Positions 1-47,300 of a stretch of 64,000 bases of DNA are shown here, in pieces. The stretch lies in the IMG/VR virus record IMGVR_UViG_3300014501_000016, positions 1 to 64,000 of that record; one strand, 5' to 3'. The number at the start of each line of letters is the position of its first letter. The first letter of the stretch is position 1. This DNA is from a virus. The notes under the pieces are model-generated. The model was not told where the DNA came from, did no database searches, and was given only the letters and a program-made list of their open reading frames with translations. The position numbers and the translations under genes were made by a program.

Positions 1-79
1 TTAGGAACAGTTTGCACGGAAACTCTCGTTTTCAGGGCCCCATATTCAAGTGTTGAACTGTGGGGGTTAATTGCTTAGA

Positions 80-156
80 TGGTGACCCGGGGCGGATTCG
101 AACCGCCGACCTAGAGGTTAGGAACCGCTCGCTCTATCCAGCTGAGCTACCGGGTC
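80..156 (-). tRNA. tRNA-Arg (anticodon CCT)
   Basis: Read on the minus strand this folds as a complete cloverleaf. The acceptor stem GACCCGG pairs with CCGGGTC, the D arm contains AGCTCAGCTGGATAGAGC, the anticodon loop is TTCCTAA (CCT in the middle), and the T arm is GGCGG-TTCGAAT-CCGCC. The encoded 3' end is ACCA, so CCA is genomic. One C-T mismatch sits in the anticodon stem. The 5' end lies only 2 bases after the stop of the leftward HTH gene that follows the integrase. It is a likely att site, or less likely a phage-borne tRNA. Confidence 0.93.
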
Positions 157-158
157 CC

Positions 159-371: not shown

Positions 372-379
372 TACGAAAC

Positions 380-27262: not shown

Positions 27263-27292
27263 ATGGGGAACCGAGCGTATGCTCTCGACACC

Positions 27293-27739: not shown

Positions 27740-27743
27740 GTCT

Positions 27744-28181
27744 ATGCCGCTGCTCTCCAGGACTAAATGGGCTTTGGCTAGCATTGCGCTTTTGGGTACT
27801 CTCGGGGTGGCTGCCGCTAACCTCGTCGTCAACCTTCGGGCCGAGCGAATCCTCGCTGCGAACGCGCGGCAAGCTGCGCAGGACAAGACCGCAGCCGAGC
27901 AGGCCGCGGCGAAACAGTTTATCCAGCAACAGGAAGCCGACAATGAACGCATGGCGGCGGCAACGGTGGCACTTGACGCCCAGAACAAAGAGACGGAGCG
28001 CGAGACCAAGCAACTGGAGCGCGATAACAGGCAGGCCGAGCAGCAGACCAAGCAGATCCAGCTAGAAACCTGGGGGCCGGACGGACCGCCGAAAGGTGTA
28101 AACACTAAAGCATGTAAAGCGTGGACCGCGCGGGCGGCTGCTGGTCATATTTCAGATCCTCCGCCGCCAGACTGCACTTAG
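27744..28181 (+). CDS. membrane-anchored coiled-coil protein
   Basis: 145 residues from ATG 27744. An N-terminal membrane anchor (KWALASIALLGTLGVAAANL) precedes about 90 residues of heptad-rich Ala/Gln/Glu helix (ETERETKQLERDNRQAEQQT). The C-terminus is Pro/Gly-rich with two Cys. Possibly an envelope-facing moron product. No family recognised. Confidence 0.6.
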   Translation: MPLLSRTKWALASIALLGTLGVAAANLVVNLRAERILAANARQAAQDKTAAEQAAAKQFIQQQEADNERMAAATVALDAQNKETERETKQLERDNRQAEQQTKQIQLETWGPDGPPKGVNTKACKAWTARAAAGHISDPPPPDCT

Positions 28182-29078: not shown

Positions 29079-29705
29079 ATGTCCATTATCGGCAGCGTAA
29101 ATGGATTTCCACTCCTATCGGTGCCGTTGACACCCGGGCAGAGGCAGGTGGACTGGTCGATGTGCAATATTGTCGGCGCGGTCCCGAACAGCTTTACGGG
29201 TAGGCAGCAAATCTATAGCTGGCAAGCTGCCTACTGGGAGGCGGTGGTCACCATGCCGCCGATGCCCAGGACTACCGCTGAATCATGGATCGCATTCATG
29301 GCCCAGGCTCAGGGGATGAACGCGGTTTTTTACTTCGGCGATGGCTTGGGCGCGCAGCCACAAGGGTCGGCGCAGGGGCCCGGCGTAACGTCTGGATCTT
29401 TCCAGGCGCCTTTCCAGCTTGCGACCAAGGGCTGGACCCCTGGACAGTTCGCGCTTCTGTCTCCGGGCGACTGGATACAGATTGGCTGGCGTTTGTACAA
29501 AGTCCTCGACCAGATATCTAGCGATGGCGCGGGCAATGCATCCTTCGCAATCTGGCCGCAGATTCGGGAGATTCCACCAAACGGAACTGCGATTGTGACA
29601 ACAAACGCGCAGGGCCTGTTCTGCATGAAGTCGAACGTTTTGAAGTATTCCGTCAGCTATCTGCGTACGTACGGTCTAAGTTTTGAGATTCGCGAAGCCA
29701 TATAG
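29079..29705 (+). CDS. distal tail/minor tail protein
   Basis: 208 residues: FPLLSVPLTPGQRQVDWSMC, GRQQIYSWQAAYWEAVVTMP, SWIAFMAQAQGMNAVFYFGD, GDWIQIGWRLYKVLDQISSD and a beta C-terminus. The layout is that of tail proteins that follow the tape measure in siphoviruses (distal tail ring). Family membership inferred from position and fold pattern. Confidence 0.75.
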   Translation: MSIIGSVNGFPLLSVPLTPGQRQVDWSMCNIVGAVPNSFTGRQQIYSWQAAYWEAVVTMPPMPRTTAESWIAFMAQAQGMNAVFYFGDGLGAQPQGSAQGPGVTSGSFQAPFQLATKGWTPGQFALLSPGDWIQIGWRLYKVLDQISSDGAGNASFAIWPQIREIPPNGTAIVTTNAQGLFCMKSNVLKYSVSYLRTYGLSFEIREAI

Positions 29706-29829: not shown

Positions 29830-30263
29830 GCCATTTTGCGCGCAAGGTATTGGGCCCGAAGCCGCAGAACGGATTTTCGACCGGCGGCATAGTTGAGAAT
29901 TCAGCTCCTTACATTGTCGGGGAGGATCCCTGCGGCTGCCACCTGGGGGGGGCGCGGCACTACCAGATCGATTCACGCGGAAGCAGCGACCCGAAAGCAG
30001 TGGAAGCTGCCGTCAAGAGGGCGATCCAGGCGAGCCACGCAAGCGCCGATCGAGTCCCGGAACCGGCACGCACCATCACACTTCCCCGTCTCTGGGTCTG
30101 GGTGCCATCCCGTTCAGCGGAAGACATCAAGGCCGGTCGCGCAGGATGGCTACCGGCTGCAATCGCGGGTACGGATTGGGATGCGCAACAGTGGCGGACA
30201 CAGTACAAGGCTCGTCACATGTGCACCCTCTGGATAAAAGCGGGCCTCGGGAATGCCACGTAA
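29805..30263 (+). CDS. protein with a second copy of the tape-measure C-terminal module
   Basis: 152 residues. GFSTGGIVENSAPYIVGEDP and HYQIDSRGSSDPKAVEAAVK mirror GGDIMGGHPALVGENGPELF and YMIDARGSNDPAAIHAAVAR at the tape measure C-terminus. The last 70 residues (TLPRLWVWVPSRSAEDIKAG onward) are unrelated. It could compete with or cap the tape measure C-terminus at the tail tip, or be a duplication remnant. The next start overlaps its end. Confidence 0.65.
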   Translation: MHSGGQAVSHFARKVLGPKPQNGFSTGGIVENSAPYIVGEDPCGCHLGGARHYQIDSRGSSDPKAVEAAVKRAIQASHASADRVPEPARTITLPRLWVWVPSRSAEDIKAGRAGWLPAAIAGTDWDAQQWRTQYKARHMCTLWIKAGLGNAT

Positions 30264-30840
30264 CGTCACCTCGAACTATCTGTTGGCGCTCCAGGAGGGC
30301 TACTTATACCCGTGCATCCTTCTCGAGATCTATTTCGCATCCGGCCCGATACGAATCTGCACCGCGTATCAAAGCCTGATCATGGACGGCCTGCTTTTCA
30401 CGGCCGCGGGCTCGCTTCTGCAAGTGTCAACGATTGAGGACGGGTCAAGCGTTCAGGCAAGAGGTGTCAGCGTAACGCTTTCGGGTATCGATCCGAACTT
30501 GATTCAGTCAACGATGAGCGAGTTTCAGGTGGGGCTATCCGCGACCATCTACTTGGGTCTGTTCGCCGGTGAAGGGCTGGACCTGGTCAACAATCCGGTC
30601 GTCGCCTGGCAAGGGAGAACGGATCAGCCGACCATCACCGTGGACGAGAAGAGGGCCAGCATTCAAATGAATCTGGAATCGGTGCTTCTCGACATGAACG
30701 TGCCGGTTCCGTATCGGTATACGAATCAGGATCAACAGTTGTTCTCGCCGGGGGACCTTGGATTTTCCTGGGTCAATTCCATCCAGTCAATCCTCATCTA
30801 CTGGGGCACGAACACGAACTCGAATCCAGGTAATCCATGA
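30253..30840 (+). CDS. minor tail/baseplate hub-type protein
   Basis: 195 residues: RNVTSNYLLALQEGYLYPCI, EIYFASGPIRICTAYQSLIM, VQARGVSVTLSGIDPNLIQS and AWQGRTDQPTITVDEKRASI. The beta-rich pattern and location between distal tail protein and receptor genes fit a tail tip hub component. The stop overlaps the next start (ATGA). Confidence 0.72.
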   Translation: MPRNVTSNYLLALQEGYLYPCILLEIYFASGPIRICTAYQSLIMDGLLFTAAGSLLQVSTIEDGSSVQARGVSVTLSGIDPNLIQSTMSEFQVGLSATIYLGLFAGEGLDLVNNPVVAWQGRTDQPTITVDEKRASIQMNLESVLLDMNVPVPYRYTNQDQQLFSPGDLGFSWVNSIQSILIYWGTNTNSNPGNP

Positions 30841-32894
30841 AGCGAATTCTCACTTTTATCGTGCTGCTGGCCTGTGCCATGGTCGCGAGCGCGCAGGTTC
30901 AGCAATCCGAAGTATGGCGGCCAATCACGGGCTATTCAGGCAACGGCCATGTGATCGCGACGGTTAACGGGCCCCTGACGCTGGGCGATTGCGATCAAAA
31001 TGACGCGTATGGGAACATGGTAGATTCTGGCTTCCCTTGTACGGGTGGCGTAGATACTCGTCCCTCTGTTATTCAGTCTACGGTGAAAACCTCTGGCGGG
31101 GGCGTGCCATTGGCTGGTAGCGGTACAGCGCAGGTCTTCACTGTCACCGGTGCCGGAACGATCACCTACATCCACTTGACATTCGGCCCAGTCACCGGCG
31201 GAGACGCCGCTAACGTCATCCAGAACAGCACCCTCAATATCAACTGCGATGGCAACCCGCAGCTCGTCTCTCTAGGTGGATTTTTTCTGTCTCAGGATTC
31301 GCCGGCCGCCTTCGATACGGAGTACATCGGCATCCCGTCAACAGTCGCGGGATTCGCAACGAATGAAACATTCAACCGCCGCACCCAGATAAACTTTTAC
31401 AGCGGCTGCACTATGACTGTTGTAAATGCCAGCTCAACCGGCGCTTCCCAGGTTTTTGCCGACGTTGCGTATAGATCAGGGACTCCGTCATCTGGACCAA
31501 CGAATTATTGGAACGCTTTCACCGCGCCATTTCAGCAGCTACCGGCAAACACCAGCGCATATAACTTCCCTCAGGTGTACATCCTTCCGCCGACCACGTT
31601 TTCAGGCGGCGGGGAATTTGAGTACATCGAAGAGTACTTCAATTCCGCGTCAAGCTACGGGTACATGGAGTCGACACCGATCGTGCTGGCGGATAGCGGT
31701 ATTGCGGCGCAATCTGGCGGTCACGAAGACTTCTATGGTTCTGGTTACTACTGCAATGCGGTCAATGGGACTCCGCAAAGTTTCACGACGAGCAAGTATG
31801 GCTGCCTACTCTCGGCTGGCCTGCAAAATAAGGCGTCTGCGGATGACTTTGTGGGTTACCGATTTTTCACGAGTAACCCGGCTGACAACATATTTTTCAA
31901 CAGCACGCTCTCCGTTTCCTCTGCGAACGGCGGCAGTAACTGTTGCTCCGCAGGAACCGTCGGCTGGGGCGGCATGGTCTCCTATTTCTCTAGAGTCCCT
32001 ACTGTCGCTCAAATCAATTTCTCTCCCGCAGCCGGGACCTACACGGGAACACAGAGCGTAGCGCTTAGTGGAGGTCCGACCGGCGACTACGTTTGCTATG
32101 CGACCGGAAGCACTGTCCCAGTCTCCAATGGTTCAGGTGGGTGCTCGACCGGAACTCTCTATTCGAGCGCCGCCAGTGTGGCCACCTCGGAGACCTTGAA
32201 CGCGGTAGGGGCAAAGTCTGGGTATAACAGCAGCCCGATGTCTTCTGCGGCTTATATCATCAACGCGGCATATAGTTCGCCCACCTATCGGACGACATGC
32301 AACAACACTCCCGGGGCCGGGACTACGACTACGGTTAACTGTACCCTCACGCCGACCGCAGGAGACCTCGTGTTCGCCGTGTGCCGCGGGGGGAATGCAT
32401 CGCAGACCAGCTACACAGTGACCAGTTCGCCGTCTGGAACATATGCCGCGATGACAATCGCCAATGGTGCCGGTGGCAGCAGTCAGGCGAGCTACGGGTT
32501 TGGCGCAACGGGTGGATCTACCACGTTTACCTGTACGACCGGCGCTGGTGGAACTAATTACCAGGGAATTCAGGTCTTGGACTATGCGCCGGGCTCAGTC
32601 ACGTCGCTTGCGGCTGGATCATCGAATGTACTCGCCTCAACATCAACCTTCACCTCGGCCGCCATCAGCACGACCGGAGCGGCGTTCTTTATCGCATGCG
32701 GGGATGCCCAGTACGGACCGCCAACGCTCTCCGTTGGAAACATCAATGGCAACACGGCGACAGCAAGAACGCTCGCATCCCCATCATCCGGATGCGAAGA
32801 TTTGTCAGTAGCTTCCTCTGCTACAAGCGCGACGGGAACAATAGGGGCCAGCAGCGCCGGTACTTGGGATGGCGTGATTGCCGCGTTCCACTAA
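30837..32894 (+). CDS. secreted beta-rich protein with chitobiase-C-terminal-like domain
   Basis: 685 residues with a Sec signal (MKRILTFIVLLACAMVASAQ). The first 380 residues are a beta-rich Ser/Gly/Thr sequence with paired Cys. Residues about 388-480 resemble a CHB_HEX_C module (INFSPAAGTYTGTQSVALSG, then VCYATGSTVPVSNGSGGC). A C-terminal domain (TYRTTCNNTPGAGTTTTVNC onward) follows. Coupled to the tail hub gene yet predicted to be exported. It could be a surface adhesin or a receptor-binding protein with an unusual leader. Confidence 0.7.
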   Translation: MKRILTFIVLLACAMVASAQVQQSEVWRPITGYSGNGHVIATVNGPLTLGDCDQNDAYGNMVDSGFPCTGGVDTRPSVIQSTVKTSGGGVPLAGSGTAQVFTVTGAGTITYIHLTFGPVTGGDAANVIQNSTLNINCDGNPQLVSLGGFFLSQDSPAAFDTEYIGIPSTVAGFATNETFNRRTQINFYSGCTMTVVNASSTGASQVFADVAYRSGTPSSGPTNYWNAFTAPFQQLPANTSAYNFPQVYILPPTTFSGGGEFEYIEEYFNSASSYGYMESTPIVLADSGIAAQSGGHEDFYGSGYYCNAVNGTPQSFTTSKYGCLLSAGLQNKASADDFVGYRFFTSNPADNIFFNSTLSVSSANGGSNCCSAGTVGWGGMVSYFSRVPTVAQINFSPAAGTYTGTQSVALSGGPTGDYVCYATGSTVPVSNGSGGCSTGTLYSSAASVATSETLNAVGAKSGYNSSPMSSAAYIINAAYSSPTYRTTCNNTPGAGTTTTVNCTLTPTAGDLVFAVCRGGNASQTSYTVTSSPSGTYAAMTIANGAGGSSQASYGFGATGGSTTFTCTTGAGGTNYQGIQVLDYAPGSVTSLAAGSSNVLASTSTFTSAAISTTGAAFFIACGDAQYGPPTLSVGNINGNTATARTLASPSSGCEDLSVASSATSATGTIGASSAGTWDGVIAAFH

Positions 32895-32900
32895 CCAAAA

Positions 32901-32969
32901 AAGGAAACCCATGAAGAAAACAGCGCTCTTCTTAGCGTGTTGCGTCGTCGCGCTCATTTCTCCGTGGGC
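32901..32969 (+). repeat. duplicated leader DNA, copy 1
   Basis: Ribosome site plus signal-peptide coding sequence, AAGGAAACCCATG to CGCTCATTTCTCCGTGGGC. It recurs almost unchanged at about 36198-36270, and its last 19 bases recur again at 37580-37598. Confidence 0.8.
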
Positions 32970-35853
32970 CGGTGCGCAGAATACCCAGATCACGGCCAGT
33001 CACATTGCGTATTTTGGCGCTGGTGGCACCCTCATCACGGGAACGATGTGTCTCACGCCCACGAATCAGGCCGGGCAGCCGATCAATATCGTGACCTCGG
33101 TCGGCCAGCAGATTTCGCCCCAGGTTCCGCTCTGCTTCCCGATCACGTCCGGCGTCCTGTCTTCTTTGGCTATTGTTCCCGATACCTCGTTGACGCAGCC
33201 AGTGAACGCCTGTTACAACGCGGTCATCAATAATTATTACGGAACCCAAGTCGCGGTCTTTCCCTGCATCCAGCCGAGCGGTTCGACGTGGAGTTTCGAC
33301 GCATTCGTGCCCAGCTCGATGCCGTCCATTCCCGCGCTTCAGCTTCCACAGTTCAGGCACAATGGCATACTCAACACCAGCCAAAATGGCCTCAACATCG
33401 TCGGCTCCGGAGTGACTGAATCGCCGGCGGGAACCATAAATATTCCGAGCGGTGTCCTGCCAGCCGCTTCCGGGTATGGACTTGTGCCCGTGTATACAGG
33501 CCCTGGAACAGCTACCAGCCCGCAGCAGGCAGTTCTCTCCTTTGGCAGCTCCTTCGATCAGTATTCCCAGCAGCAAGTAAACAACGCCAATTACACAACT
33601 TTCCGGGTAAACGACCTAAACAATGTTTTCTATGCAGATGGATTTACTGCGGCAGGACAATACACGGGTATTGGCGTAGCTCAAGTGGCATATGGAGGGA
33701 GCACAGAATACCCTCTCTGCCAGGCTGTCAGCTATTCAGGGTCGAACTACGTCGCAGTAGGGCATAGCAATATCGGCATCACGCCGGGAACCAACTTGGC
33801 GATCTGGTCGGTCCCGGTGCCCAATTCCGGTCCGACTACGGGCCCAGACTGCGCATTTTATACTGCCTACGCTTATAGCTATTCGCGCAGTGTTCAAACG
33901 TCGCTAGTGTTTGGTGGCCAGTTCTACAACACGCAGGGAATGATTGAGCCAACGGGACTTTACTCGGTCAATCTTATTGGTCAAGGGATATTCGGGTCTT
34001 TCTTGACTTATACCGGTACAGCCGCTACGCCAGTAATCTATAGGCCTGACGGCGGAAACAACTATACCTACCTGCAGATCAAGAACTTCATCATCGATGG
34101 CGGAGGGGTAGCGTCGTCGATCATGGACCTTGGGCAGCTCAATCAATCGGTCGCCGAGGAGATACAAGGGCAAAATATCGCCCCGAGCGCGCTAGGATCT
34201 GGTGGCCATTTCTTTGAGTTCGGCCTATCCCCCGGCGACTCGTTTCAAATGATGGCCAAGCACATAACGACGAGCGTCCCTGGAAATCGGGGAAACTCGG
34301 CTCAGATAATTGCAAACCTGACAGGCAGCACGCTTAGTTCTTTCACGGTGACGAATGGCGGCTCTGCCTACCCACCTCCAAGCTCGACCGCTGTCTACAC
34401 AGTGCAGGTGCGTGGATATCAGGGGGGAACGGCGGTCCACCCCTGCACCGTAATGCCCACATGGACCGGTGTCCCTGTCACTATCGCGGCGGGTGTGCTT
34501 ACAGCCATTGCCGCCCCGACATCTGGAGGTACAGGGTGCGTCGGGCCCCTTTATGTGCAGGTCTACGAGTCGTTTCCGGTGGACTATAGCGTGATTTGGA
34601 ATTCGTCCGATTCAACCATGATAGATTCCACTTTTTACGCTGGTAACTTGGCCGCTGTCGAGGTACTTGCCGGGGATAACGTATTTGTTCATCTTCACCC
34701 GTCCATCGTCCCAAATGGTGTTATCGTGAATGGCGGTTCGGCGATATTCGATGCAACAGAGTTGGATGGAATTTTCGACAAAGGATTCCAGTTGTTCGAG
34801 CCATACCCAACGCAAGCCACTTCAATTAACGGCACACATGGATACGACGCTGGATACAGATTGGCTGGATCTGTAACCTACTACCTTGGAAGCTCGGGCA
34901 CTAATGCGACCTTTGGCCCATCTGCCAGCTTGTGCGATGCTTCTGCGACCATCCCCCCGCTTGGGTGGCAGGAGTTTGTAACTCAATCAGGACCGATTCA
35001 GACACAGGCAGACTACCTAACTAAAGCCCCAGCGGACTTTAGTGTCACCGGAAACGATACAACCTGCGGTGAGGTGATAGGGGATTATCAGCCGACCGCT
35101 ACTTTCGGGAAGATTATTTCTCCGTCTATTGTCTTGAGTGGCATAACTCCAGGAACCACTCCGGTATGTCCAAACGGAACGGGAGGGGCGCTTACTACGG
35201 CAGGATGTACATCTGCTGGCGCGGGTCTCGGAGCCAATTCATTCACGGGCAGCCAAACAATCGCCAGCGGATCTGATTTGATTTTAAATGGCGGGGTAAA
35301 CCTTCATCTTTACTCGGACACGAGCGCAACTTATGCCGGATGGGACTTCTTTGACGGGACGAATCAATTTTTCAAGGTTCTCGATACCACTAGCGGTGGT
35401 GCCACCGGTGCAACCATGGCCTCCGGTGGGTGCATGCAGTGGACCAGTTCCTCATCTGGGCTATCGCTTTCAGACTCGTTCATCTGCCGACCGAACGCCC
35501 ATAATTTTACGTTCGGCTCAGTGCCCGGCGACTCCATTGGAGTCGTTATGGCGGGGATGTATGTCGTCGGCGGCTATACTTTCACTGCCACTGGATGCAG
35601 CAACTCGACTCTGGTTGGCGGAGCTACGGCGGGCTCGTTTCACTCCGGGACCACAGGTACATGCACGGTCACAATCACCATGGCGAATTCAGATACAGCA
35701 CCTAACGGGTTCTCTTGCAACAGGCCGAATGATCTGACGACTAACAGCGACTCAGCTAGCTGGAGCCAAACAGCAACCACGAGCACCACAGCGACACTGT
35801 CGGGAACCACAGTATCAGGAGACGTGATTAATTTCGCATGTACGCCATACTAG
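32911..35853 (+). CDS. secreted beta-helix-type protein, receptor/fibre-like
   Basis: 980 residues from ATG 32911. The Sec signal is [23 protein letters not shown]. Residues about 24-135 form a domain shared with the collagen-like protein at 37540 (QITASHIAYFGAGGTLITGT, PSGSTWSFDAFVPSSM). The middle looks like a right-handed beta-helix of the pectate-lyase/tailspike type. The C-terminus has TGSQTIASGSDLILNGG repeats like fibre tips and a Ser/Thr-rich end. A tailspike is the usual reading, but the signal peptide argues for export. Confidence 0.72.
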   Translation: MKKTALFLACCVVALISPWAGAQNTQITASHIAYFGAGGTLITGTMCLTPTNQAGQPINIVTSVGQQISPQVPLCFPITSGVLSSLAIVPDTSLTQPVNACYNAVINNYYGTQVAVFPCIQPSGSTWSFDAFVPSSMPSIPALQLPQFRHNGILNTSQNGLNIVGSGVTESPAGTINIPSGVLPAASGYGLVPVYTGPGTATSPQQAVLSFGSSFDQYSQQQVNNANYTTFRVNDLNNVFYADGFTAAGQYTGIGVAQVAYGGSTEYPLCQAVSYSGSNYVAVGHSNIGITPGTNLAIWSVPVPNSGPTTGPDCAFYTAYAYSYSRSVQTSLVFGGQFYNTQGMIEPTGLYSVNLIGQGIFGSFLTYTGTAATPVIYRPDGGNNYTYLQIKNFIIDGGGVASSIMDLGQLNQSVAEEIQGQNIAPSALGSGGHFFEFGLSPGDSFQMMAKHITTSVPGNRGNSAQIIANLTGSTLSSFTVTNGGSAYPPPSSTAVYTVQVRGYQGGTAVHPCTVMPTWTGVPVTIAAGVLTAIAAPTSGGTGCVGPLYVQVYESFPVDYSVIWNSSDSTMIDSTFYAGNLAAVEVLAGDNVFVHLHPSIVPNGVIVNGGSAIFDATELDGIFDKGFQLFEPYPTQATSINGTHGYDAGYRLAGSVTYYLGSSGTNATFGPSASLCDASATIPPLGWQEFVTQSGPIQTQADYLTKAPADFSVTGNDTTCGEVIGDYQPTATFGKIISPSIVLSGITPGTTPVCPNGTGGALTTAGCTSAGAGLGANSFTGSQTIASGSDLILNGGVNLHLYSDTSATYAGWDFFDGTNQFFKVLDTTSGGATGATMASGGCMQWTSSSSGLSLSDSFICRPNAHNFTFGSVPGDSIGVVMAGMYVVGGYTFTATGCSNSTLVGGATAGSFHSGTTGTCTVTITMANSDTAPNGFSCNRPNDLTTNSDSASWSQTATTSTTATLSGTTVSGDVINFACTPY

Positions 35854-35863
35854 AGGAGTCAAG

Positions 35864-36181
35864 ATGAAGCTTCTGCCATTATTGGTTTTATTCGCCGCCG
35901 CAGCGCAGGCCCAGGTTGCTGGCCACGCGCCAGTTCGCCACCCCGATCAAGAGTTAAGGCAGGGTCATGCAATTCTGGCCCCTCGATTCAATAAGGATGA
36001 GGCGGCATTCAAAGCCCTCCCCGCTCCATCACCTGACGCAATCAAGGCCGAACGCGAGATGCAGCAATGCTTTGCCGTCGCCCGCGGCACTGAGGGGATG
36101 TATGGCATTCCCGATGGCCAAGGCATGAAGCCCAATTGCGACCGCCAGTTCAACGCGCTCGAAGCGATTATCGGCAAATGA
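35864..36181 (+). CDS. small secreted protein
   Basis: 105 residues: signal MKLLPLLVLFAAAAQAQVAG, then a polar helical domain with two Cys (EREMQQCFAVARGTEGMYGI, MKPNCDRQFNALEAI). AGAGGAGTC upstream. Unknown. It sits between two large secreted proteins. Confidence 0.65.
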   Translation: MKLLPLLVLFAAAAQAQVAGHAPVRHPDQELRQGHAILAPRFNKDEAAFKALPAPSPDAIKAEREMQQCFAVARGTEGMYGIPDGQGMKPNCDRQFNALEAIIGK

Positions 36182-36197
36182 TGACGGCGGCTCCAAA

Positions 36198-36270
36198 AAG
36201 GAAAACCCATGCTTAAGAAAACAGCGCTTCGACTCGCGCTCTGCCTTGTCGCGCTCATTTCTCCGTGGGC
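36198..36270 (+). repeat. duplicated leader DNA, copy 2
   Basis: The same ribosome site and signal-peptide DNA as at 32901-32969, with a two-codon insertion (Leu, Lys). The shared block at the 3' side spans 23 identical bases ending at 36270. Confidence 0.8.
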
Positions 36271-37543
36271 GGCCCTGGCGCAGAGCATCTTCAACTGTTC
36301 CACCTTCAATGGCGGTTCTTCTGGAGCGTGTTCTGTAGCGCCCTACTATGACAACACGAATGGTTTCGCGACAACCCAGCAGATTTGGATCAGATCCACC
36401 TGTCAATCAAGCGCGAGCCCGTCTTGCCTCTCTGGCACAGCGGCCAACTTCGTGCCCACGGCCGCCACGCACAACGGCTATGGGATGGCTTACTCTGTCG
36501 GCAAAGTAAACGTTCAAGCATTCACTGAAACCTTCACCTTTGTGCCCAACGGATGGAACTTTGCGCTCGTCATGCAGGATGACAATACCCACTCTGGCTT
36601 CGAAGGTGCCGCGTTTTCCTCCGGAGCATCATGCGAGGCTGGGTTTTATCAGGATGACGGGGTAGATCCGACCCCGAACAACCTTTTCGCGCTGGACTTC
36701 GATTCTTCCGGCTACATCGGCGGCTCGTTCAGCTACAGCACGGTGCAGATTTACCAGCAGCATCAGTCGCCCTGCCAGCCGAACGATGGAGGCACGCACT
36801 GGTATTCGACCACAAAAACCAGCACCTCTCCCGTTCCGCTGACCTCTCCAGCCAGCACGCAATACTCGACCACCGGAGACACTTACTCGGCCACGGTTAC
36901 TTATGACGGGTCCACCCTGACGCTCGCAATGTACGACATGACCGCCTCAGGATCGTGCCCAGGAGCAAGCTGCTTCACCAACACCTGGTCGAACGTAAGC
37001 ATCCCGTCAGTGGTGGGAGCGAGCACAGCTTGGCTCGGCTTCACTTCGGCCGTAGGAAGCGGCAGTCCGCAAGAACCTTCTCAGTACCCGCTGCTTGTGA
37101 AAACGTGGAGCTATACGGTCAATACGCCCACGGCCAATCCAAGCACCACTGCCTGGAACACAGGGTCCACCTACAACACCGGCACCGTCTCCGCGGCGAG
37201 CCCGGTTTACTCTGTGGCGCCGGGGACCTATTCAGGGACACAAAGCGTGTCGATCACCAGTTCCACCGGCAGCGCAAACATCTGCTATGTAGTGTCTTCC
37301 ACCACGCCCACGCTCTACCCTCAGGTGGACAACAACGGAGGCTGCGCGGCGGGAACTGCTTACACCGGGCCAGTCTCCATCCCGTCCACTTCCACGCTCT
37401 ACGCTATGGCCGGAACGCCTTGGGGTACTGGACCGCCAAGCACGCTGGTAGCAGGGACCTACACCATCAGTCCGAGCAACCAGGTGAATGGCACCATGGC
37501 CGGCGGCATGATGAGTTTCGTTTCTGAGGACAGGACCAAATGA
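36209..37543 (+). CDS. secreted L-type lectin-like protein with chitobiase-C-terminal-like domain
   Basis: 444 residues. The signal is [25 protein letters not shown]. Residues about 27-305 show a legume/L-type lectin pattern: [76 protein letters not shown] and VKTWSYTV. Residues about 330-425 resemble CHB_HEX_C ([20 protein letters not shown]). Such proteins bind glycans. Being secreted, it could modify lysogen surface properties. The stop overlaps the next start (ATGA). Confidence 0.8.
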
Positions 37544-39381
37544 AGAAATTAGCGTTCGCACTCGCGCTGTTCTTGGCTTCGCTCATTTCTCCGTGGGCGT
37601 CACAAGCACAGACCACGACCATTACCGCGAGCCTGATACAGCACGACGTGTCAGGCGATCTGCTCACGACCGGCTTCTTTCAGCTGATCCCGGTCAACCA
37701 GTTGGGCAATGTCGCGGCGTTCACGGCTTGCGGCGGTGGCCAGGTGCTGCCGATCGTTTACTTCTGGCCGATTGTCAACGGCGTGATTACCGGTGGCGCG
37801 ACCGTTCCTGATAGCTCTTGCGCAACGCCCAGCGGAGTTGGCTATCTCGTCTCGATCACGGCGACGAATCACCAGGTGCTCTACAGCTACGGCCAGCCGA
37901 TTCATCCGACCGGAAGCACTTGGTCGTTCGATACCTGGTCCCCCACCTCGGTCTATACTCCCGCGCCAGCCAACGCAGTCGGCAGCGGAGGATCGGCTCC
38001 GGTCGGGGCCTGCACCGCGCCGTCGATCTATTACACCGGTTCGTCGATCTACTATTGCCAGGGCGGCGTGTGGGTGCTCTTCTCCTCGGGCGGCAGCAGC
38101 ACGATCAGCTGGCAAGGGGCATGGGCTAGCGGCACGACATACAGCACGGGTATGGGAGTCAGCCGCACGGTCAGCGGTGTTGCCAGCAGCTACGTTTCGA
38201 TCAATTCGAGCACCGGTGCGGCTCCTGAGAGCAACCCTGGACACTGGCAGCTTCTTGCGTCCGGGGCTGTGGGCACGGCAGGCGCAACCGGGGCGACCGG
38301 TCCAGCAGGCGCAACGGGGGCAGCCGGAGCCACGGGTGCGACCGGAACGACAGGCGCGACGGGAGGGGCAGGTGCTGCGGGCGCGACCGGCGCCACGGGG
38401 CCAGCAGGCTCAACCGGTGCGGCAGGTGCCACGGGTGCTGCGGGAGTTGGTCTCCCCACGGCGACCGCAGCGGGCCAACAACCATATTCTGCAGGGGCCG
38501 GTACCACCTATGCCGCGGACGGCAACCTGTCGCGCACGCCGGCAGGCATTCAGCGCCAGGCAATTGCCGGCAGCACAATCACTTCCTCGAGCACTATTGC
38601 TCCGACGAGCCCCGTTTCCTATGTCAGCGGGAGCGCGAGCGTCAATGTGATGACACCGCCGACCGGCTGCACGACAACCGGCGTCGATTGCAAGCTTGAA
38701 CTTGTCGCGGCCGCATTCTCGAGCTGGACCACTGCGACCGGCGGCGGCGCTGGGGGATTCGCTTCCGTAAGCACCCCGCTTCCAGGGCAGGCACTTCTCT
38801 TCAGCTATGACCCTGCCGTCGGACTATGGTACCCGTCTGGGGGCGGCATACCGCAGCCGCCCGGAAGCGGCGTGCCCACGTGGGATGCCGTATCCGGTCG
38901 CTGGGCGGGCTTCTATCCCGTCAACGGCACGGGCAATCTGGTTGCTGGCAGCGTGCTCGCAGGTTATTGCCCGCTCACCGGTTGCGCCTATACCGGAGGC
39001 ATATCGGTCGGCGGCGCCGGTACCGGCATTGCTGGCCTAGGGACCACCGCCATCACAGCGGGCGCGAGCAGCTTTATCGGCACCGGCGGCACGGCAGCAC
39101 CCGCGACAAGCGCCATCTGCGATTCTTTTAGCGGCACGATCACGCTGACAACCGGAACGGGCACACCCACCACGGGCATGGTCCTCACGCTCACGCTGCC
39201 CAGCGGTCGGGCTTCCCCGCCCAACGTTCTCTCGAGTTTCGTTGATTCAAACGGAAATCGGGCAGCAGTCACTATGACGGTGACAGACTCGGCGGGAATA
39301 ATCACGCTTGTCTATACTTCGAAGACGGCCCTGACCGCATCGACCGTTTACACCGTAACTTATATGGCCATGGGGATATAA
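37540..39381 (+). CDS. secreted collagen-like protein
   Basis: 613 residues. The signal is [24 protein letters not shown]. Residues about 24-140 are homologous to the start of the 32911 protein ([29 protein letters not shown]). About 193-245 hold a carbohydrate-binding-like module ([24 protein letters not shown]), then about 20 Gly-X-Y triplets, then a beta-rich C-terminal half. It probably forms a trimeric stalk. Either a fibre or an exported adhesin; the signal peptide favours export. Confidence 0.78.
38272..38450 (+). repeat. collagen-like Gly-X-Y repeat
   Basis: A run of GGN-NNN-NNN codons encoding [19 protein letters not shown]-type triplets, GC-rich and prone to slippage. Confidence 0.85.
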
Positions 39382-42123
39382 ATGCGCGCAACTCTCCAGG
39401 GCATTCTTCGCGGCTTGGCATTCTTGCTGTTCGTGTGCCCGATGGCGCGCGCGACTACCTTTAACGTCAATGGCTCCCAGACTCAATCGACTATCCAGGG
39501 GGTCATCAGTGCGGCTTCCCCGGGGGATACTATATCGTTCGCGTCCGGAACTTATACCCTAAGTTCGTCCCTTACCCTTAAGTGCGGCATTACCTACACC
39601 GGGCCAGTGACCACCCCTGCTACCGCAAAAATTACTACGAGCACAGCAAACATATCGCTGCTTCAGATGTATGGAGGGTGTTCATCGGGAACGACAACGA
39701 TTGAGTACCTGCAGCTTGATGGGGCAGGAGCGATATTTTTTGATACAAGCGGTTATACCAACGTCAATTTTCTGCACAATCAAACTACCTCTGTCCCCTA
39801 CAATCCTAGCGCTTATGGCGCCACCTCATCGCTGTTCCTTAGTGGAAACATAACTAATATCGACGCAAACTTCACGATCGAGTACAACACTTTTGGTGAC
39901 GCCAACTCATGCACAGCAGCGCTCAGTGTGGATGACGGTACTTGCGCGGGAGTCATCACCGGCAATGTCGGACATCTCCGCAACTTCACCATGAAGTACA
40001 ACACCTTCTACCATCTTGGCGAGGGTGTCCATATGGAGCAAGTGGACTATGTTCCGGGTGCTCAACCCATTGGCGACTGTAACAATTGCGACATCGAATT
40101 TAACTTTTTCAACCAAATAGTCAGGATTTGGATGGAGATACAAATCGGCGTTGAAGATGGCGGCAACCCGATGATCACAAGCAATAACGTGTTCATGAAC
40201 CCCTACCAGGGAGGTGTTCCCTGGAGTGGGATGGCGCTATCTGCGCCATGCTGTCAATCTTCTGGCCCCACTACCCATCCGACTAATACGATTCCATCGA
40301 ACTTAATCCAAAACAATCTGTTTATAAACTCGCTGAGCACGTCTTTTGCTACACCTAACGGCATAGAAATGTCCGGGTCGGGAACGCAGGCCACCAATAA
40401 TTTGATTCAAGGATTTTTTTGTACCGGAGTGGTGTGGTCGACCAATAGTCACAGTTGGGCCATCTCCAACAATACGATCACGGGACAAATGATGGCTTCT
40501 GGGTCTGCCTGCTACAGTTTTGGAGGCAGCCAGTTCACGACCAGCGAGTGCACTGGCTGCACCGCGCCGATTATGGCGGGAAACGTAACCGGGTCAACGT
40601 CATCAGCTATTACCAGCGTCGCTCCCACCTCCATCTCTCCAGCGGCTGGAAGCTACGCCTTCCCGCTTGCGGTGACGCTCACCGATCCCGGCTATACTTC
40701 GGGCGCCATACCATTAGGCAATACTGGCATCTGGTACACCACAGACGGATCTACGCCAGTTCCGGGATCGGGGACAGCTAAATATCTCGCAAGTGGCGGC
40801 AGTTTCATCTTGCCCTCTGCGGCAACGGTCAAGGCGGTAGGCATGTGGGGGAGTGCCAATCAGCCTACGAGTTATCCCGGCGGATACGGGTTCGTTCCAA
40901 GCTCGGTGGTGAGCGCTGCCTATTCGGCCTCCGGAGGAGTCTTGACCCTTACCGGCATTACGCTCGGCGCCCCATCGACGGCGCTGATTGCTGGCGGCGC
41001 GGCCGAGCAGGGCACCCTCATCTGCCATTATTCCGATAGCTCGAGCGATGATTGCACGAACACCGATGCGCATGGATTCGGGCCGGGCACATTCGCCAGC
41101 TCGTTGGCGTCCGTCGCCACAATATCTTCCACGGCATTGATAACTCCGCTGGTCGCCGGCACAACCAACTTGACCGCAACGCTGGGCGTCCTCACTTCTA
41201 CCTTGCCCATATCGGTAAGTAGTGGTGCATCTCCATTTTTGGGAAACAACCAGGAAAATTTCGCCGGGTTCACCTCTGCCAACTTTTTCAACAGCGTTTA
41301 TGCCATCAGTCCGCCCTATGCGACCACGGTCGGCAATTGTCATTTCTTCCTGCCGACAGGCACCATCACTTTGGGCGCTCACTACGATTGCCTGATCATC
41401 ACAGCGCCGACTGCCACGACGGAAGCATCGGCGCTCACCTGTCACGCAACCTATACGACCACCAGCACCAGCGCGCCGAACGCGTTTGTTAGCTTGCCGA
41501 TCACGGGTTGCGGGACGATTGCGGCCTCTACTCCCTATTGGGTAGCCACCAACACCAACGATTCGAGCGGGCCTAATTTTGGATTTTGGAATTGTGGCGG
41601 AAGCTGCGGGGCGACCGCTCCGACCACCTATGGCACAGGCACCTATTCGAGTTATTGGGTGGCCATCAATTACGGCACATATACCGGATTGCCCAGCTCG
41701 CTCTCCGCGAACACCTACCAGGTCTCGCAATATGTCGACCTGATGCCCACCGCGCCGACGCTGGTCAGTGGATATCAGGACAATACGCTGTCGATCAACA
41801 AGATCGTTCTAGGCTCCGGCTATCAGCAGCATGCCTATTGCGTCTACAGCGACGGCGTTATCTACCCCTGCGATACCACCGACGCACGCGGGAACGCGGT
41901 GACGGCCTGGACGGAGGACAGCGGCGGCGTGATCCTCGCGATCGGTGCCGTGGGCAGCGGGAGCCCTGGCCTTATCACCGCGACAGGATATGGCCAGACG
42001 AATACTCATTGCACGCTGACGGGTTCCGTTTCCTGTGCTGAATACACCTGGACCGTGACAAACCAACCGGCGACGAGCTCGGTAATACAGGGCGCGAACC
42101 TTCACGGCAGCAACGTTAACTAA
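39382..42123 (+). CDS. secreted right-handed beta-helix protein with chitobiase-C-terminal-like domain
   Basis: 913 residues starting on the previous stop. The signal is LRGLAFLLFVCPMARA-TT. Residues about 25-400 are beta-helix-like: QSTIQGVISAASPGDTISFA, GTYTLSSSLTLKCGITYTGP and many Asn-rich turns (NFTIEYNTFGD, NNTITGQMMASGS). About 410-510 resemble CHB_HEX_C (ISPAAGSYAFPLAVTLTDPG, GIWYTTDGSTPVPGSG). Ig-like and further beta domains follow. Looks like a polysaccharide-active or surface-binding exoprotein. Confidence 0.78.
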   Translation: MRATLQGILRGLAFLLFVCPMARATTFNVNGSQTQSTIQGVISAASPGDTISFASGTYTLSSSLTLKCGITYTGPVTTPATAKITTSTANISLLQMYGGCSSGTTTIEYLQLDGAGAIFFDTSGYTNVNFLHNQTTSVPYNPSAYGATSSLFLSGNITNIDANFTIEYNTFGDANSCTAALSVDDGTCAGVITGNVGHLRNFTMKYNTFYHLGEGVHMEQVDYVPGAQPIGDCNNCDIEFNFFNQIVRIWMEIQIGVEDGGNPMITSNNVFMNPYQGGVPWSGMALSAPCCQSSGPTTHPTNTIPSNLIQNNLFINSLSTSFATPNGIEMSGSGTQATNNLIQGFFCTGVVWSTNSHSWAISNNTITGQMMASGSACYSFGGSQFTTSECTGCTAPIMAGNVTGSTSSAITSVAPTSISPAAGSYAFPLAVTLTDPGYTSGAIPLGNTGIWYTTDGSTPVPGSGTAKYLASGGSFILPSAATVKAVGMWGSANQPTSYPGGYGFVPSSVVSAAYSASGGVLTLTGITLGAPSTALIAGGAAEQGTLICHYSDSSSDDCTNTDAHGFGPGTFASSLASVATISSTALITPLVAGTTNLTATLGVLTSTLPISVSSGASPFLGNNQENFAGFTSANFFNSVYAISPPYATTVGNCHFFLPTGTITLGAHYDCLIITAPTATTEASALTCHATYTTTSTSAPNAFVSLPITGCGTIAASTPYWVATNTNDSSGPNFGFWNCGGSCGATAPTTYGTGTYSSYWVAINYGTYTGLPSSLSANTYQVSQYVDLMPTAPTLVSGYQDNTLSINKIVLGSGYQQHAYCVYSDGVIYPCDTTDARGNAVTAWTEDSGGVILAIGAVGSGSPGLITATGYGQTNTHCTLTGSVSCAEYTWTVTNQPATSSVIQGANLHGSNVN

Positions 42124-42141: not shown

Positions 42142-42486
42142 ATGGTGCGCGTAAAAACGGGGCAAGATGGAAAGGCAATAGGCACCTGGAAGCCTGGCGA
42201 TCCGCCCCCGGTAAGCCAGGACGACAGTCTGCCTCAGATGCCGAATTGGATCATCGGCATCCTGCTCGATTCACCTGACGAGATCGTTCACGCCGCGGCC
42301 TTGCGCTATCAGGTGGCTGAGCCGCATCGTCACATATCGCGCGAGGACCCGCTCTTCTCCGGCACATGGCTGGTGCTCGAAAAGGACTACACCGGGCGAG
42401 GGTGCGTGTATCTGTTTCACCCGCCCGAGGCCGAGATTAAAGCGAAAGCGTGGGCCAAACTAAAGAACGAATTACTGGATTTGTGA
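42142..42486 (+). CDS. small protein, YTGRGxVYLFH family (copy 1)
   Basis: 114 residues. The C-terminal half carries EDPLFSGTWLVLEKDYTGRG-CVYLFH, then a Lys/Ala-rich helix. The downstream gene has the same block, so the two are tandem paralogues. No known family. They follow the secreted protein array and may serve it or the tail. Confidence 0.65.
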   Translation: MVRVKTGQDGKAIGTWKPGDPPPVSQDDSLPQMPNWIIGILLDSPDEIVHAAALRYQVAEPHRHISREDPLFSGTWLVLEKDYTGRGCVYLFHPPEAEIKAKAWAKLKNELLDL

Positions 42487-42492
42487 TGCGCC

Positions 42493-42768
42493 ATGACCAA
42501 GCGCAATCCGCAACGCAAAGGCGATGCGCGGGGACTGTGGAAGCTGGTGCAGCCGGAACCGCCCACGGAGATTCCGGGCCCCGTTATGTTCAATCTACCT
42601 CGCATGCGTTATCGCGCCCTCGAAGACCCATTCTTCCTCGGCACATATAAGGCCGAACCAGTTAGCTATACGGGGAGAGGCATCGTCTACCTGTTTCACG
42701 GCAGGGGCGCGCGACAGAAAGCTCAGGCGAAGGCGGCGGAGATCAATCAGAGGGACGGGTTCGTGTGA
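42493..42768 (+). CDS. small protein, YTGRGxVYLFH family (copy 2)
   Basis: 91 residues: ALEDPFFLGTYKAEPVSYTG-RGIVYLFH followed by a basic helix (GARQKAQAKAAEINQRDG). Paralogue of the preceding gene, with a shorter and more basic N-terminus. Unknown function. Confidence 0.65.
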   Translation: MTKRNPQRKGDARGLWKLVQPEPPTEIPGPVMFNLPRMRYRALEDPFFLGTYKAEPVSYTGRGIVYLFHGRGARQKAQAKAAEINQRDGFV

Positions 42769-43096: not shown

Positions 43097-43537
43097 ATGA
43101 GGCGACATCCGGATTGGGCAACGCGCCTCGATGTATACATTGCAGCGAACGCATCCATGCCGTTCAGCTATGAGCGCGCGAACGGATTGGATTGCTGCAC
43201 GTTCGCGTTCGGGGCTATCCATGCCATGACCGGCATCGCGATAGGCGCCCAGTTTGTGGGCATCTACAGCACGAAACGTGAATCACTCATCGCAATGCGG
43301 AGTTACTGCGGGAGCCCATCGCTTCGCATGGCGATCGCGAAGTTGATGACTGAAAACAAGTTTGGGCGCCGTCCTCCGCTTTTTGCGCAACGTGGCGATG
43401 CGGTTCTCGTGCCGAACGGTCCGGCAGGAGAATTCTTTGGCGTGGTTGACCTCAATGGACGAGACGTATTAGGTATCGGCGACCGTGGCATACGCCGCGT
43501 CCCAATAAGCATTGAATGCCGTGCCTGGCGCATTTAG
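43097..43537 (+). CDS. NlpC/P60-like (DUF6950-type) tail hydrolase
   Basis: 146 residues. RRHPDWATRLDVYIAANASM, then the likely catalytic Cys in RANGLDCCTFAFGAIHAMTG, RGDAVLVPNGPAGEFFGVVD and LGIGDRGIRRVPI form the reduced papain-like fold of DUF6950 proteins encoded beside the central tail protein. It probably degrades peptidoglycan during DNA entry. The usual catalytic His is not obvious; the GVVD segment occupies its position. Confidence 0.72.
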   Translation: MRRHPDWATRLDVYIAANASMPFSYERANGLDCCTFAFGAIHAMTGIAIGAQFVGIYSTKRESLIAMRSYCGSPSLRMAIAKLMTENKFGRRPPLFAQRGDAVLVPNGPAGEFFGVVDLNGRDVLGIGDRGIRRVPISIECRAWRI

Positions 43538-44385: not shown

Positions 44386-47300
44386 ATGTCGAAGGTCATA
44401 GAGCAGGTTGGAATCGGTGCAGGCTTAATCGCGCTCAGTGTCTTTGTTCCCGGCGGATTCCTGGCTGCGGGCGGGCTGCTGTCTGCGGTCGGCGGCATGG
44501 CAAGTATTCTTGCAAGCGCCGGCGCAGGCATGGTGTTGAGCGGAGTCGGCACACTGCTTGGCCAAAGGGCCAGCGGCATCAGCACGACCAGCCGGAATCC
44601 GATCATGCCATGGCAGTGCTGCTATGGCAGAAAAAAGGTCGGCGGCACCATCGTCTACCTCGAGGAAACGGCCACCCACAACCGGATTATCACATTCGTC
44701 ATCGTGGTCGCCTGCCATCCAATCGACGGGATAGAAGAGGTCTGGTTTAACAATCGCAAGCTCCCATTGCAGCCCTACACCCAGTTTGGCGACGCGTCGA
44801 ATCCAAATGGATTCCTTCAAAGCTGGGTCCCCCCACAGGGCAACTGGGTAATCGAGACCATCTCTCGCATAAACGATGTCGTCTCGGTCACGTTCGCGCA
44901 AAACCCAAATTCCCAGTATCTGCAGTTTAATGGCGAAACCTTACACATCCACGGGACCATTGACGCGGCTGGAGGCAGCACGTTCGAGGGGTACTATCCC
45001 GTGGTGCAGACCGGGCCCGCGGCCTTCACCTACACCGCTGGCGGCCCACCGGGCGCGGGCGTGCCCGGCACCGGCCAGATTACGACCACCTGGCCCGCAT
45101 ATCCCACCGCCAATGTGGTCGTGGGCTATTACACCGGAAATCAGACCGCTGCGAGCGGCATAGTCATGGGCAACACGGCAGGGTACTGGACCTCGCAGTG
45201 CCTACTCACCGGCCGCGCTTACGTGGTCCTCAAACTCAACTATGACGCGAACGTTTACACCGGGCTGCCCGAATTCTCATTTGTGATCCGCGGCAAGAAT
45301 GATATCTATGATCCGCGGACCGGCCAGAAGAGTTACACGAATAACGCCGCGCTCTGCATAGCCGACTTTCTCGCGCACCCGCTTTGGGGATACAACGATT
45401 ATTACGAATCCGGACCACAGCCTCAGCCAGGCGAGGTCAAGCGGTTCATGATCCCCGATGCCGAGCTGATCTCCGCGGCTAACATCTGCGACGAGCAAGT
45501 GCAACTGTTCTCAGGGGCTTCAGAGAACCGCTACAGTTGCGACGGAGCATGGGACGTCTCCGTATTGCGCGCGGAAGTGCTTCAGAACCTGCTCACGAGT
45601 TGCGGTGGTCGCCTGGTCGAAATCGGCGGACAACACTTCATCTATCCGGCCGCGTGGATCTCCCCATCGGGCGCGATCACGATTGGCAATGGCACGACGG
45701 GACCGCTGATGATGATGAACTCGTTTGGGCTGGTCGCCGAATATTTCAATAATCCGGTCGCTGCCTACATTCCCGATTGCGCCGGGTCGACCGAATCCCA
45801 GTTCGTTTATGCGTTGGGCCTGCTCAATGCCTATCAGGCGGTCGGGAACTCGAATGCGAAGGCGCTCGCCCAACTGATCCTCTCCGCGGTCGTGCCTTTT
45901 CTGTTCCGGGGCATGCAACCGCCGGCGCAGGTCACGGCCACGAATATCTGGTCGCCAAACTCCTATTTCGATGTCAAACAGCCATTCCTTGACTATGCCG
46001 GCAACACTATCAGCGTCACTCAGGACTTTGCGAGCACGATCGAGGGCGGCTGGCGGACGCTGGTCGGCGCCGAGATCCAGACCAGTTGCGATGCCTACAA
46101 CTGGGCGATGCGCTTGTTCGCGGCCGCGGCGCTGATCTTTGACGGGGCGACGGACGTTCCTTCAATCGATCTAGGCTACGGCCTCAGTCCTTACGGGCAG
46201 AGTTATGGCGACCCGGAAACGCCTGGCACCACGATCAACAGCGGCTGGCTCGTCATGTTGACCGCGATTCGACAGATGGCGCGCATCGCCTACAATGTTC
46301 CGTCCTCCGGAGCCTATCAGGGCGGCATGATCCCGTTCGTCGTCTCGTTCCTGGGGACGCCGGCGCCAGCGCTCAATACCTGGCTGGGCCCGGCTTACGT
46401 CGGTTATCAGTCGCCGTGGGCAGTCAACCAGGTGAACCCTTTCGGGGTCGCAAATGCGATCGAGTTCATCGCCGAATCACAGGCCACGCTCGCAGTTCAG
46501 GGCACGATTGCCGACACCGTGACCTTCACGGTCACCGGGGCGAACCCGAAGACGTTAGCTGTCCCGATTGCGATCAAGCCGGACGGCACGTCTTCGGCTC
46601 AATTCAGCTATGCCGGGCTGAACGTCGGAACCGACACCATCGTGGGCACGCTCCCGTCCCATTCCCTGACCTCGAATGCCGGCCAGGTCGCCTGGAGTGC
46701 CTACGCGGCCCCTATAGCCGTTTTTGGCGTCCAGGTCGCGGTGATGAGTGCGGATGGGTCAGGACTCTTCAACGGCCTCAGCGCGGTACTGTCCACCACG
46801 CCTGTGCAGGGGTTAATGTTCAACTCCCATCCGCAGTCAATCTTTCCGGGAGACCCCCACCAGTCCGGCAACCAGGCCAACCCATTCGTCTCGAACGCGG
46901 TATCGACCACGGGCACCTATGCGGGCGACACCCCGATTCCGAATACCGGCGGCAGATTCAACGCGGTGATCACCGGCTTTATGACGATTGAGACGGCCGG
47001 CCCGCAGACCTTCACGGTCTACGTTAACAGCGCCTTCGTGATCGGCTTCAATGGCGGCGTTACCTATGTGGCCGGATTCAGAAACCTTGGCGCGCTCTCT
47101 GGCGGCACGCCCACCTTGGGATTCCCGGCGCTCGCGGGGTTCAATAATGCGGGCGACTTCCCTGGCGCGAATTGGGCGGTGGTTAGCTTCACCCTGAACT
47201 TCCCGAACCCTGGCATATACCAGTTCGAAATCCCCTACGCCTCGGGGCTATTCTCTGAGCGGCAATTTGCCATGCTGAGCGGCACCGGCACCGTCATTCC

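What the first reader, a model, noticed from the sequence alone, without database searches (positions are those of the whole stretch)
30837..42123. Six consecutive Sec-signal proteins in the tail-fibre locus
Seen: proteins at 30837, 32911, 35864, 36209, 37540 and 39382 all begin with clear signal peptides, although they sit between the tail hub gene and the tail tip gene. Their modules (beta-helix, L-type-lectin-like, collagen-like, chitobiase-C-terminal-like) bind or coat surfaces. Known: tail fibres assemble in the cytoplasm, and exported proteins would not join the virion by the usual route. Inference: this may be a lysogenic-conversion array that changes the host surface, or virion proteins with an unusual maturation route.
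Basis: partly seen in the sequence, partly recalled or inferred. Interest (0 to 1): 0.8.

Follow-up and report, generated by a model that had tools for sequence, protein, structure and literature searches.

The report
Tail-fibre proteins carrying export signals
A soil phage, probably of Acidobacteriota, has six neighbouring tail-locus genes whose proteins carry secretion signals, and relatives of two of them are ordinary tail fibres without the signal; this suggests that these phages fold their host-binding proteins outside the cytoplasm, unlike other tailed phages known to me, but incorporation into the virus particle is not yet shown.

Summary
Six consecutive genes (30837-42123) start with Sec/SPase-I-like signal peptides, against 2 of the other 76 called genes in the window. 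They form a tight operon inserted between the hub gene and the DUF6950-tail-tip pair, which are adjacent or nearly so in related prophages. Lysogenic conversion is not supported: the block is fused to the late tail operon, none of the six proteins has a membrane or surface anchor, and the cultured Tunturiibacter phages Tunturi_1/2, for which no integrase is reported, carry similar runs. Two of the six share an N-terminal domain whose predicted fold best matches the tail-fibre attachment domain of cyanophage A-1(L). In Acidobacteriota phages that domain exists with a signal peptide (mature end A|Q..) and without one (start codon at the same place). Mature signal-bearing proteins have even cysteine counts in 35 of 37 cases, against 29 of 65 for signal-less tail proteins, and pair their cysteines in the shared domain; this supports real export and disulphide bonding. 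Best explanation: receptor-binding tail proteins exported by Sec, folded in the periplasm, and added to virions at lysis. Export is well supported. Docking onto the virion is inferred and needs proteomics; Tunturi phages are culturable and suitable.

The parts
380..1531 (-). Tyrosine integrase (temperate phage); tRNA-Arg at 80-156 is a possible att site
   Evidence: Pfam PF00589 4.7e-10; tRNA. No repeat of the record's first 500 bases was found near its other end.
29079..29705 (+). Distal-tail-like protein upstream of the hub, no signal peptide
   Evidence: Homologues precede the hub in most Terriglobia prophages examined.
30253..30840 (+). Hub / minor tail protein, last canonical gene before the block
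   Evidence: phrog_2048 4.2e-37; 47% identical homologue in a Terriglobia prophage.
30837..32894 (+). SP1: signal peptide (AMVASA|QVQQ), DUF2961 domain (GH172 glycosidase-like, from own knowledge), CHB_HEX_C-like domain, unknown C-terminus; 16 mature Cys
   Evidence: the CHB_HEX_C part matches Tunturi_1/2 'virion structural protein' gp17 at 54%.
32911..35853 (+). SP2: signal peptide (SPWAGA|QNTQ), transthyretin-like fibre-attachment N-domain, long variable body; 18 mature Cys
35864..36181 (+). SP3: small exported protein (AAAAQA|QVAG), 2 mature Cys, no family
36209..37543 (+). SP4: signal peptide, lectin-like region also matched in 1,300-1,900-aa proteins of host genomes, CHB_HEX_C domain; 10 mature Cys
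   Evidence: RBS + signal peptide copied between SP2 and SP4: 62/75 nt identical from -16 to +59, mature parts unrelated.
37540..39381 (+). SP5: signal peptide ([10 protein letters not shown]), the same attachment N-domain as SP2, CBM_5_12-like segment, collagen repeat, C-terminal domain; 9 mature Cys
   Evidence: phrog_5073 tail fiber protein 2.1e-17; N-domain model pLDDT 87.5; A-1(L) tail fibre Z 10.1.
39382..42123 (+). SP6: signal peptide (CPMARA|TTFN), repeat-rich body and Ig/Fn3-associated-like domains below Pfam cut-off; 24 mature Cys
42142..42486 (+). Small ORF without signal peptide, end of the insert
42493..42768 (+). Small ORF without signal peptide, end of the insert
43097..43537 (+). 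DUF6950 protein, adjacent or near-adjacent to the hub in relatives
   Evidence: PF22262 4.3e-27; synteny.
44386..48732 (+). Tail-tip (J-like) protein, no signal peptide
   Evidence: phrog_5616 3e-52, phrog_31 1.1e-21.
49068..49970 (+). Tail fibre without signal peptide (weak CBM_5_12 plus collagen-like), sharing that module with SP5
   Evidence: phrog_5073 2.2e-17; SP5-49068 match 1.8e-4.

Best explanation
The block encodes receptor-binding and surface-acting tail proteins of a temperate siphovirus-like phage, probably of Terriglobia (Acidobacteriota). They are made in the late tail operon, exported by Sec, cleaved by signal peptidase (typically leaving an N-terminal Gln), and folded and disulphide-bonded in the periplasm. 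They then dock onto cytoplasm-built virions when lysis mixes the compartments, through an ordinary tail-fibre attachment domain that starts right after the cleavage site (clear for SP2 and SP5; the others may attach to these or act as free enzymes/lectins). Shown by computation: signal peptides, shared domains, paired cysteines, position, recurrence. Inferred: cleavage, periplasmic folding, docking at lysis, receptor binding.
For: Signal peptides on six of six. SP2 and SP5 share an N-domain whose model (pLDDT 87.5) best matches the cyanophage A-1(L) tail fibre (Z 10.1, 91 residues at 2.3 A, fibre residues 2-103), then A-1(L) neck fibre, Ur-lambda tail tip and Bxb1 tail tip at Z 8.0-8.6, among non-phage folds at similar Z; BFVD hits include Streptomyces BRock tail fibre and Arthrobacter minor tail protein. 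The same domain occurs in Acidobacteriota (pro)phage contigs with a signal peptide, or without one with the start codon at the mature end (MPTGYTQVSA.. versus A|QTTTITAS..). Signal-less forms follow the tape-measure gene (L243, L248, L249, L259) or lie after the tail tip (L172); signal-bearing forms follow the tail tip as sole fibre candidate (L246, L256, L258) or follow the hub as three consecutive signal-bearing genes exactly as in the window (L253). Cysteines: 35 of 37 mature signal-bearing proteins even versus 29 of 65 signal-less tail proteins (Fisher 1.2e-7); 1.91% versus 0.80% Cys. Within the shared domain, all 15 signal-bearing rows even versus 2 of 7 signal-less; 11 signal-bearing rows have both Cys 103 and 142, no signal-less row has both. 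Tail-locus genes >=200 aa with signal: 16/54 in Terriglobia versus 0/23 in other hosts with the same hub-J module (Fisher 0.0019). Tunturi_1, 2 and 4 carry runs.
Against: No proteomics exists (PMC11924767 contains none). Only two of six carry the attachment domain; SP1, SP3, SP4 and SP6 could be free secreted proteins. The window also encodes a signal-less fibre (49068). Docking after export has no precedent known to me in tailed phages. SP5 has an odd cysteine count. SignalP was not run. Trees of the short domain are weakly supported, and near relatives inflate some counts.
Confidence: 0.6

Rival explanations
1. Secreted accessory proteins, not virion parts: glycan-degrading enzymes and lectins exported late in infection that loosen the host's exopolysaccharide, help progeny escape, or mask receptors. 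The attachment-like domain would have been recruited for another purpose.
For: Real export is well supported. DUF2961 and CHB_HEX_C domains and a GDSL esterase in a relative act on glycans. The SP4 lectin-like region occurs in large proteins of host genomes.
Against: Position inside the tail cassette; N-domain with tail-fibre attachment fold; signal-less homologues with the same domain order; sole fibre candidate in several phages.
Confidence: 0.22
2. Lysogenic conversion: the proteins are made by the prophage and change the lysogen's surface.
For: The window phage has an integrase and tRNA-Arg; the proteins are exported adhesin-like.
Against: Translationally coupled to the late hub gene, no own promoter signal, no anchors, similar runs in Tunturi_1/2 without reported integrase.
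Confidence: 0.06
3. The hydrophobic N-termini are not used for export; they are kept in the virion as hydrophobic anchors or trimerisation segments.
For: Tailed-phage fibres normally fold in the cytoplasm (own knowledge); no tool result supports this directly.
Against: Canonical AXA cleavage sites followed by Gln; homologues lacking the segment begin at the same place; cysteine parity and pairing track the presence of the segment.
Confidence: 0.07

Closest known systems
N-terminal attachment domain of tailed-phage fibres (cyanophage A-1(L) tail fibre 8kec, neck fibre 8keg; Ur-lambda tail tip 9e7m; Bxb1 tail tip 9d93)
   Same: Same predicted fold at the N-terminus; in the collagen-bearing members it is followed by collagen-like repeats and a variable C-terminus.
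   Different: Here a Sec signal peptide precedes the domain, and paired cysteines are added in signal-bearing forms. Similarity is structural only (22% identity at best).
Collagen-like tail fibre families phrog_5073 / phrog_366 / phrog_6320
   Same: SP5 and relatives match the collagen-containing part.
   Different: The signal peptide; part of the score comes from low-complexity collagen repeat.
Filamentous-phage pIII adhesin (own knowledge)
   Same: Receptor-binding protein made with a Sec signal peptide and disulphide-bonded in the periplasm before joining the virion.
   Different: Filamentous phage is assembled in the inner membrane and extruded; here the virion is a cytoplasm-built tailed particle released by lysis. 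No homology claimed.
Sec-exported endolysins (fOg44 Lys44; PMC6116005)
   Same: A tailed phage uses host Sec with a cleavable signal peptide.
   Different: Lysis enzymes, not tail-locus proteins.
Tunturiibacter phages Tunturi_1, _2, _4 (PMC11924767)
   Same: Runs of signal-bearing tail-locus genes annotated as tail fiber, tail spike, pectin lyase, virion structural protein.
   Different: Podovirus or other siphovirus backbones; the signal peptides were not remarked on in the paper (0 occurrences).

Membership tests
Sec/SPase-I exported proteins | n-h-c signal peptide with AXA-type cleavage site | tested here: met
   All six, with a home-made scorer, not SignalP.
Sec/SPase-I exported proteins | Mature protein suited to an oxidising compartment (even, paired cysteines) | tested here: met
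   35/37 even versus 29/65; column pairs. In the window five of six are even; SP5 has 9.
Sec/SPase-I exported proteins | Observed cleavage and translocation | not testable with these tools
   Needs N-terminal mass spectrometry or PhoA fusions.
Tailed-phage tail fibre / receptor-binding protein | Gene within the tail module | tested here: met
   Between hub and DUF6950/tail tip; L253 has the same arrangement after the hub.
Tailed-phage tail fibre / receptor-binding protein | N-terminal virion-attachment domain | tested here: met
   SP2 and SP5 only, by predicted fold. SP1, SP3, SP4, SP6: no such domain found.
Tailed-phage tail fibre / receptor-binding protein | Physical presence in virions | not testable with these tools
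   No virion proteomics of an acidobacterial phage was found.
Lysogenic conversion (moron) genes | Autonomous transcription unit, typically own promoter and terminator | tested here: not met
   4-nt overlap with the hub gene, gaps 0-27 nt, no excess of promoter- or terminator-like sites.
Lysogenic conversion (moron) genes | Confined to temperate phages | tested here: not met
   Present in Tunturi_1/2, for which PMC11924767 reports no integrase.
GH172 / DUF2961 glycosidases (SP1) | DUF2961 domain above curated cut-off | tested here: met
   PF11175 3.5e-9, 37 bits versus 27.
GH172 / DUF2961 glycosidases (SP1) | Fold and catalytic residues | tested here: inconclusive
   Single-sequence model failed (pLDDT 29); residues not tested.

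The most novel reading that the evidence does not exclude
A previously unrecognised assembly route for tailed phages: in Acidobacteriota phages of several morphotypes the receptor-binding proteins are exported by host Sec, oxidatively folded in the periplasm, and fitted onto cytoplasm-assembled virions during lysis. Signal peptides behave as portable cassettes gained, lost and copied between fibre genes.
Probability: 0.55. Interest if true: 0.9.

Novelty: new variant of a known kind. Interest (0 to 1): 0.77.

Why it matters
Signal peptides have been treated as evidence against a phage-structural role (PMC6199706 cites their absence in phage DGR targets as support for phage origin), so pipelines may discard or misfile such fibres. 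If they are virion parts, tailed-phage assembly need not be completed in the cytoplasm, disulphide-stabilised fibres become possible, and host range could depend on the host's Sec and disulphide-forming machinery. It is directly testable in culturable soil phages and their laboratory hosts.

Tried and rejected
Single-protein scans of viral contigs with SP1, SP4, SP5 and the tail tip, and of genome contigs with the tail tip, found nothing. A nine-row alignment was too diverse to scan with; a six-row one worked. tblastn of SP2 and SP5 against phages: no match. SP1's front part has no good relative in 299 Terriglobia genomes (one hit at 6.6e-4), so the array is not a common free bacterial locus. 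phmmer of SP1 and SP4 against PDB: nothing. Foldseek against PDB gave no significant hit for the N-domain; the VIA-align re-ranking did. Single-sequence model of SP1 failed. Three phages of Bacteroidota (B40-8, crAss001, FCL-2) were checked as a further control: none of the 37 structural or tail-region proteins scored has a signal peptide. Paper searches found no report of signal peptides on tail fibres, but subscription papers and preprints are not held. Considered and rejected: oxidising host cytoplasm as cause of the cysteine pattern (signal-less tail proteins of the same phages do not show it); mis-assembly (same arrangement in L253).

Full report
SETTING. The window is part of a 66,891-base IMG/VR virus record with an HK97-type head module (terminase, portal, S49 protease, capsid), an integrase beside tRNA-Arg and a long tail operon. 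The hub's best homologues in the genomes searched are in Terriglobia (Acidobacteriota) prophages, 42-47% identical, so the host is probably Acidobacteriota (inference).

OBSERVATION. Six consecutive genes (30837, 32911, 35864, 36209, 37540, 39382) start with classical signal peptides. Of 82 called genes only two others are flagged, at 27263 and 27720. The first gene overlaps the hub stop codon by 4 nt and the following gaps are 16, 10, 27, -4 and 0 nt. SP2 and SP4 are 62/75 nt identical from the ribosome-binding site through the signal peptide, and SP5 shares the cassette less closely. Their mature parts are partly unrelated (SP4 versus SP2), so the export cassette itself has been copied between genes.

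SYNTENY. In Roseobacter, Acinetobacter, Klebsiella and other phages with the same hub, and in most Terriglobia prophages examined, hub, DUF6950 and tail tip are adjacent or nearly so. The window's 11-kb block is therefore an insertion. IMG/VR contig L253 has the same arrangement: hub, then three consecutive signal-bearing genes, two of them homologues of SP2, before the contig ends. L244 has three consecutive signal-bearing genes. Cultured Tunturi_1 and Tunturi_2 carry signal peptides on gp12, gp13, gp14, gp16 and gp17, and Tunturi_4 on gp113 and gp114 (my scorer missed gp12 for its -1 residue, but MKKFIQLALLFILPAAASA|Q is evident). Tunturi_4 gp111 gains a signal peptide if its start is moved to a better-placed upstream TTG. 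PMC11924767 reports integrase/recombinase genes only for Tunturi 3-5, and describes no virion proteomics.

HOST SPECIFICITY. Among co-directional tail-locus proteins of 200 aa or more near the tail tip, 16 of 54 in Terriglobia (window included) but 0 of 23 in other phages and prophages with the same hub-tail-tip module have signal peptides (Fisher p 0.0019). Two of the 16 are doubtful, and at least one (L177) was missed through a late start. Proteins within one phage are not independent.

THE KEY DOMAIN. SP2 and SP5 share a ~120-residue N-terminal domain. Homologues come in two states. With signal..A|Q[TY]TxIxAS (window SP2, SP5; L168, L173, L177/L188, L186, L193, L244-L247, L253-L258, L261). 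Without: start codon at the mature end, MxxG[YF]TxVSA (L172, L184, L187=L248, L189=L252, L192, L243, L249, L250, L259, L260). The signal-less forms sit directly after the tape-measure gene or after the tail tip, and share the following collagen and esterase-like modules. On a tree of the domain the state needs three changes (bootstrap 3-4), but one origin is not excluded by well-supported branches. The AlphaFold2 model (pLDDT 87.5) matches the N-terminal 100 residues of the cyanophage A-1(L) tail fibre (Z 10.1), with further phage neck- and tail-fibre domains at Z 7.3-8.6 among unrelated folds, and viral models named tail fiber and minor tail protein. So the signal peptide precedes what looks like an ordinary virion-attachment domain.

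EVIDENCE FOR REAL EXPORT. Disulphide-bonded proteins favour even cysteine counts. Of 37 mature signal-bearing tail-locus proteins with cysteine, 35 have an even number (binomial p 5e-9), against 29 of 65 signal-less tail proteins of related phages (Fisher p 1.2e-7); cysteine content is 1.91% versus 0.80%. In the window the mature counts are 16, 18, 2, 10, 9 and 24. Within the shared domain signal-bearing rows carry cysteines in co-occurring column pairs (30-63, 64-85, 103-142, 159-170; two rows use other pairs and one has none), 15 of 15 even; signal-less rows are 2 of 7 even, mostly with Cys 142 lacking its partner. Near relatives are included, so the p-values are optimistic, but the pattern tracks the signal peptide within one homologous domain.

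LYSOGENIC CONVERSION. Late-operon coupling, no excess of promoter- or terminator-like sites, absence of lipobox, PEP-CTERM-like motif or hydrophobic C-terminus, and presence in Tunturi_1/2 speak against it. A search of 299 Terriglobia genomes found no good relative of SP1's front part; SP4's lectin-like region matches large proteins in host genomes, a likely source of such modules.

MECHANISM. Shown: signal peptides, shared domain, cysteine pattern, position, recurrence. Inferred: Sec export, cleavage, periplasmic oxidation, docking onto virions at lysis through the mature N-domain, receptor or glycan binding by the C-terminal modules. The DUF2961 domain of SP1 suggests glycan processing. SP1, SP3, SP4 and SP6 lack the attachment domain, so free secreted helpers remain possible for them.

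KNOWN OR NEW. Sec-exported endolysins are known in tailed phages (PMC6116005) and pIII of filamentous phage is a periplasm-folded adhesin (own knowledge). Signal peptides on tail-fibre genes, with a paired-cysteine signature and recurrence across Acidobacteriota phages, were not found in the open-access papers searched. PMC6199706 uses absence of signal peptides as support for phage origin of proteins. I file it as a new variant of a known kind (tail fibres), with the assembly route as the novel case.

Noticed in passing
L009 30076-30433 (Tunturi_4, PP885687 80076-80433): The deposited start of tail fiber gp111 (GTG, poor RBS) is probably too late: an in-frame TTG at L009 30076 with a better RBS adds a signal peptide similar to that of gp113.
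   Followed up: yes
window 44386-48732: The tail-tip protein is unusually long: PHROG matches cover mainly residues 243-428 and 1024-1241, with a stretch of about 600 residues between them; a Serratia phage protein matches parts of 436-1223.
   Followed up: no
window 27263-28181: Two overlapping genes after the tape-measure gene with N-terminal signal or anchor segments (158 and 153 aa), possibly lysis proteins such as spanins.
   Followed up: partly
window 55517-57760: Single 747-aa gene with both a helicase C-terminal domain and an N6/N4 DNA methylase domain.
   Followed up: no
L246 8058-10574: A signal-bearing fibre candidate carries a GDSL lipase/esterase domain.
   Followed up: partly
window 36284-37180: The lectin-like region of SP4 matches 1,300-1,900-aa proteins in most of the 12 of 299 Terriglobia genomes with a hit, suggesting module exchange between phage and host.
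   Followed up: partly
window 1-500 and record end: tRNA-Arg lies next to the integrase, but no att-like repeat of the first 500 bases was found near the other end of the 66,891-base record; the record may be incomplete.
   Followed up: partly
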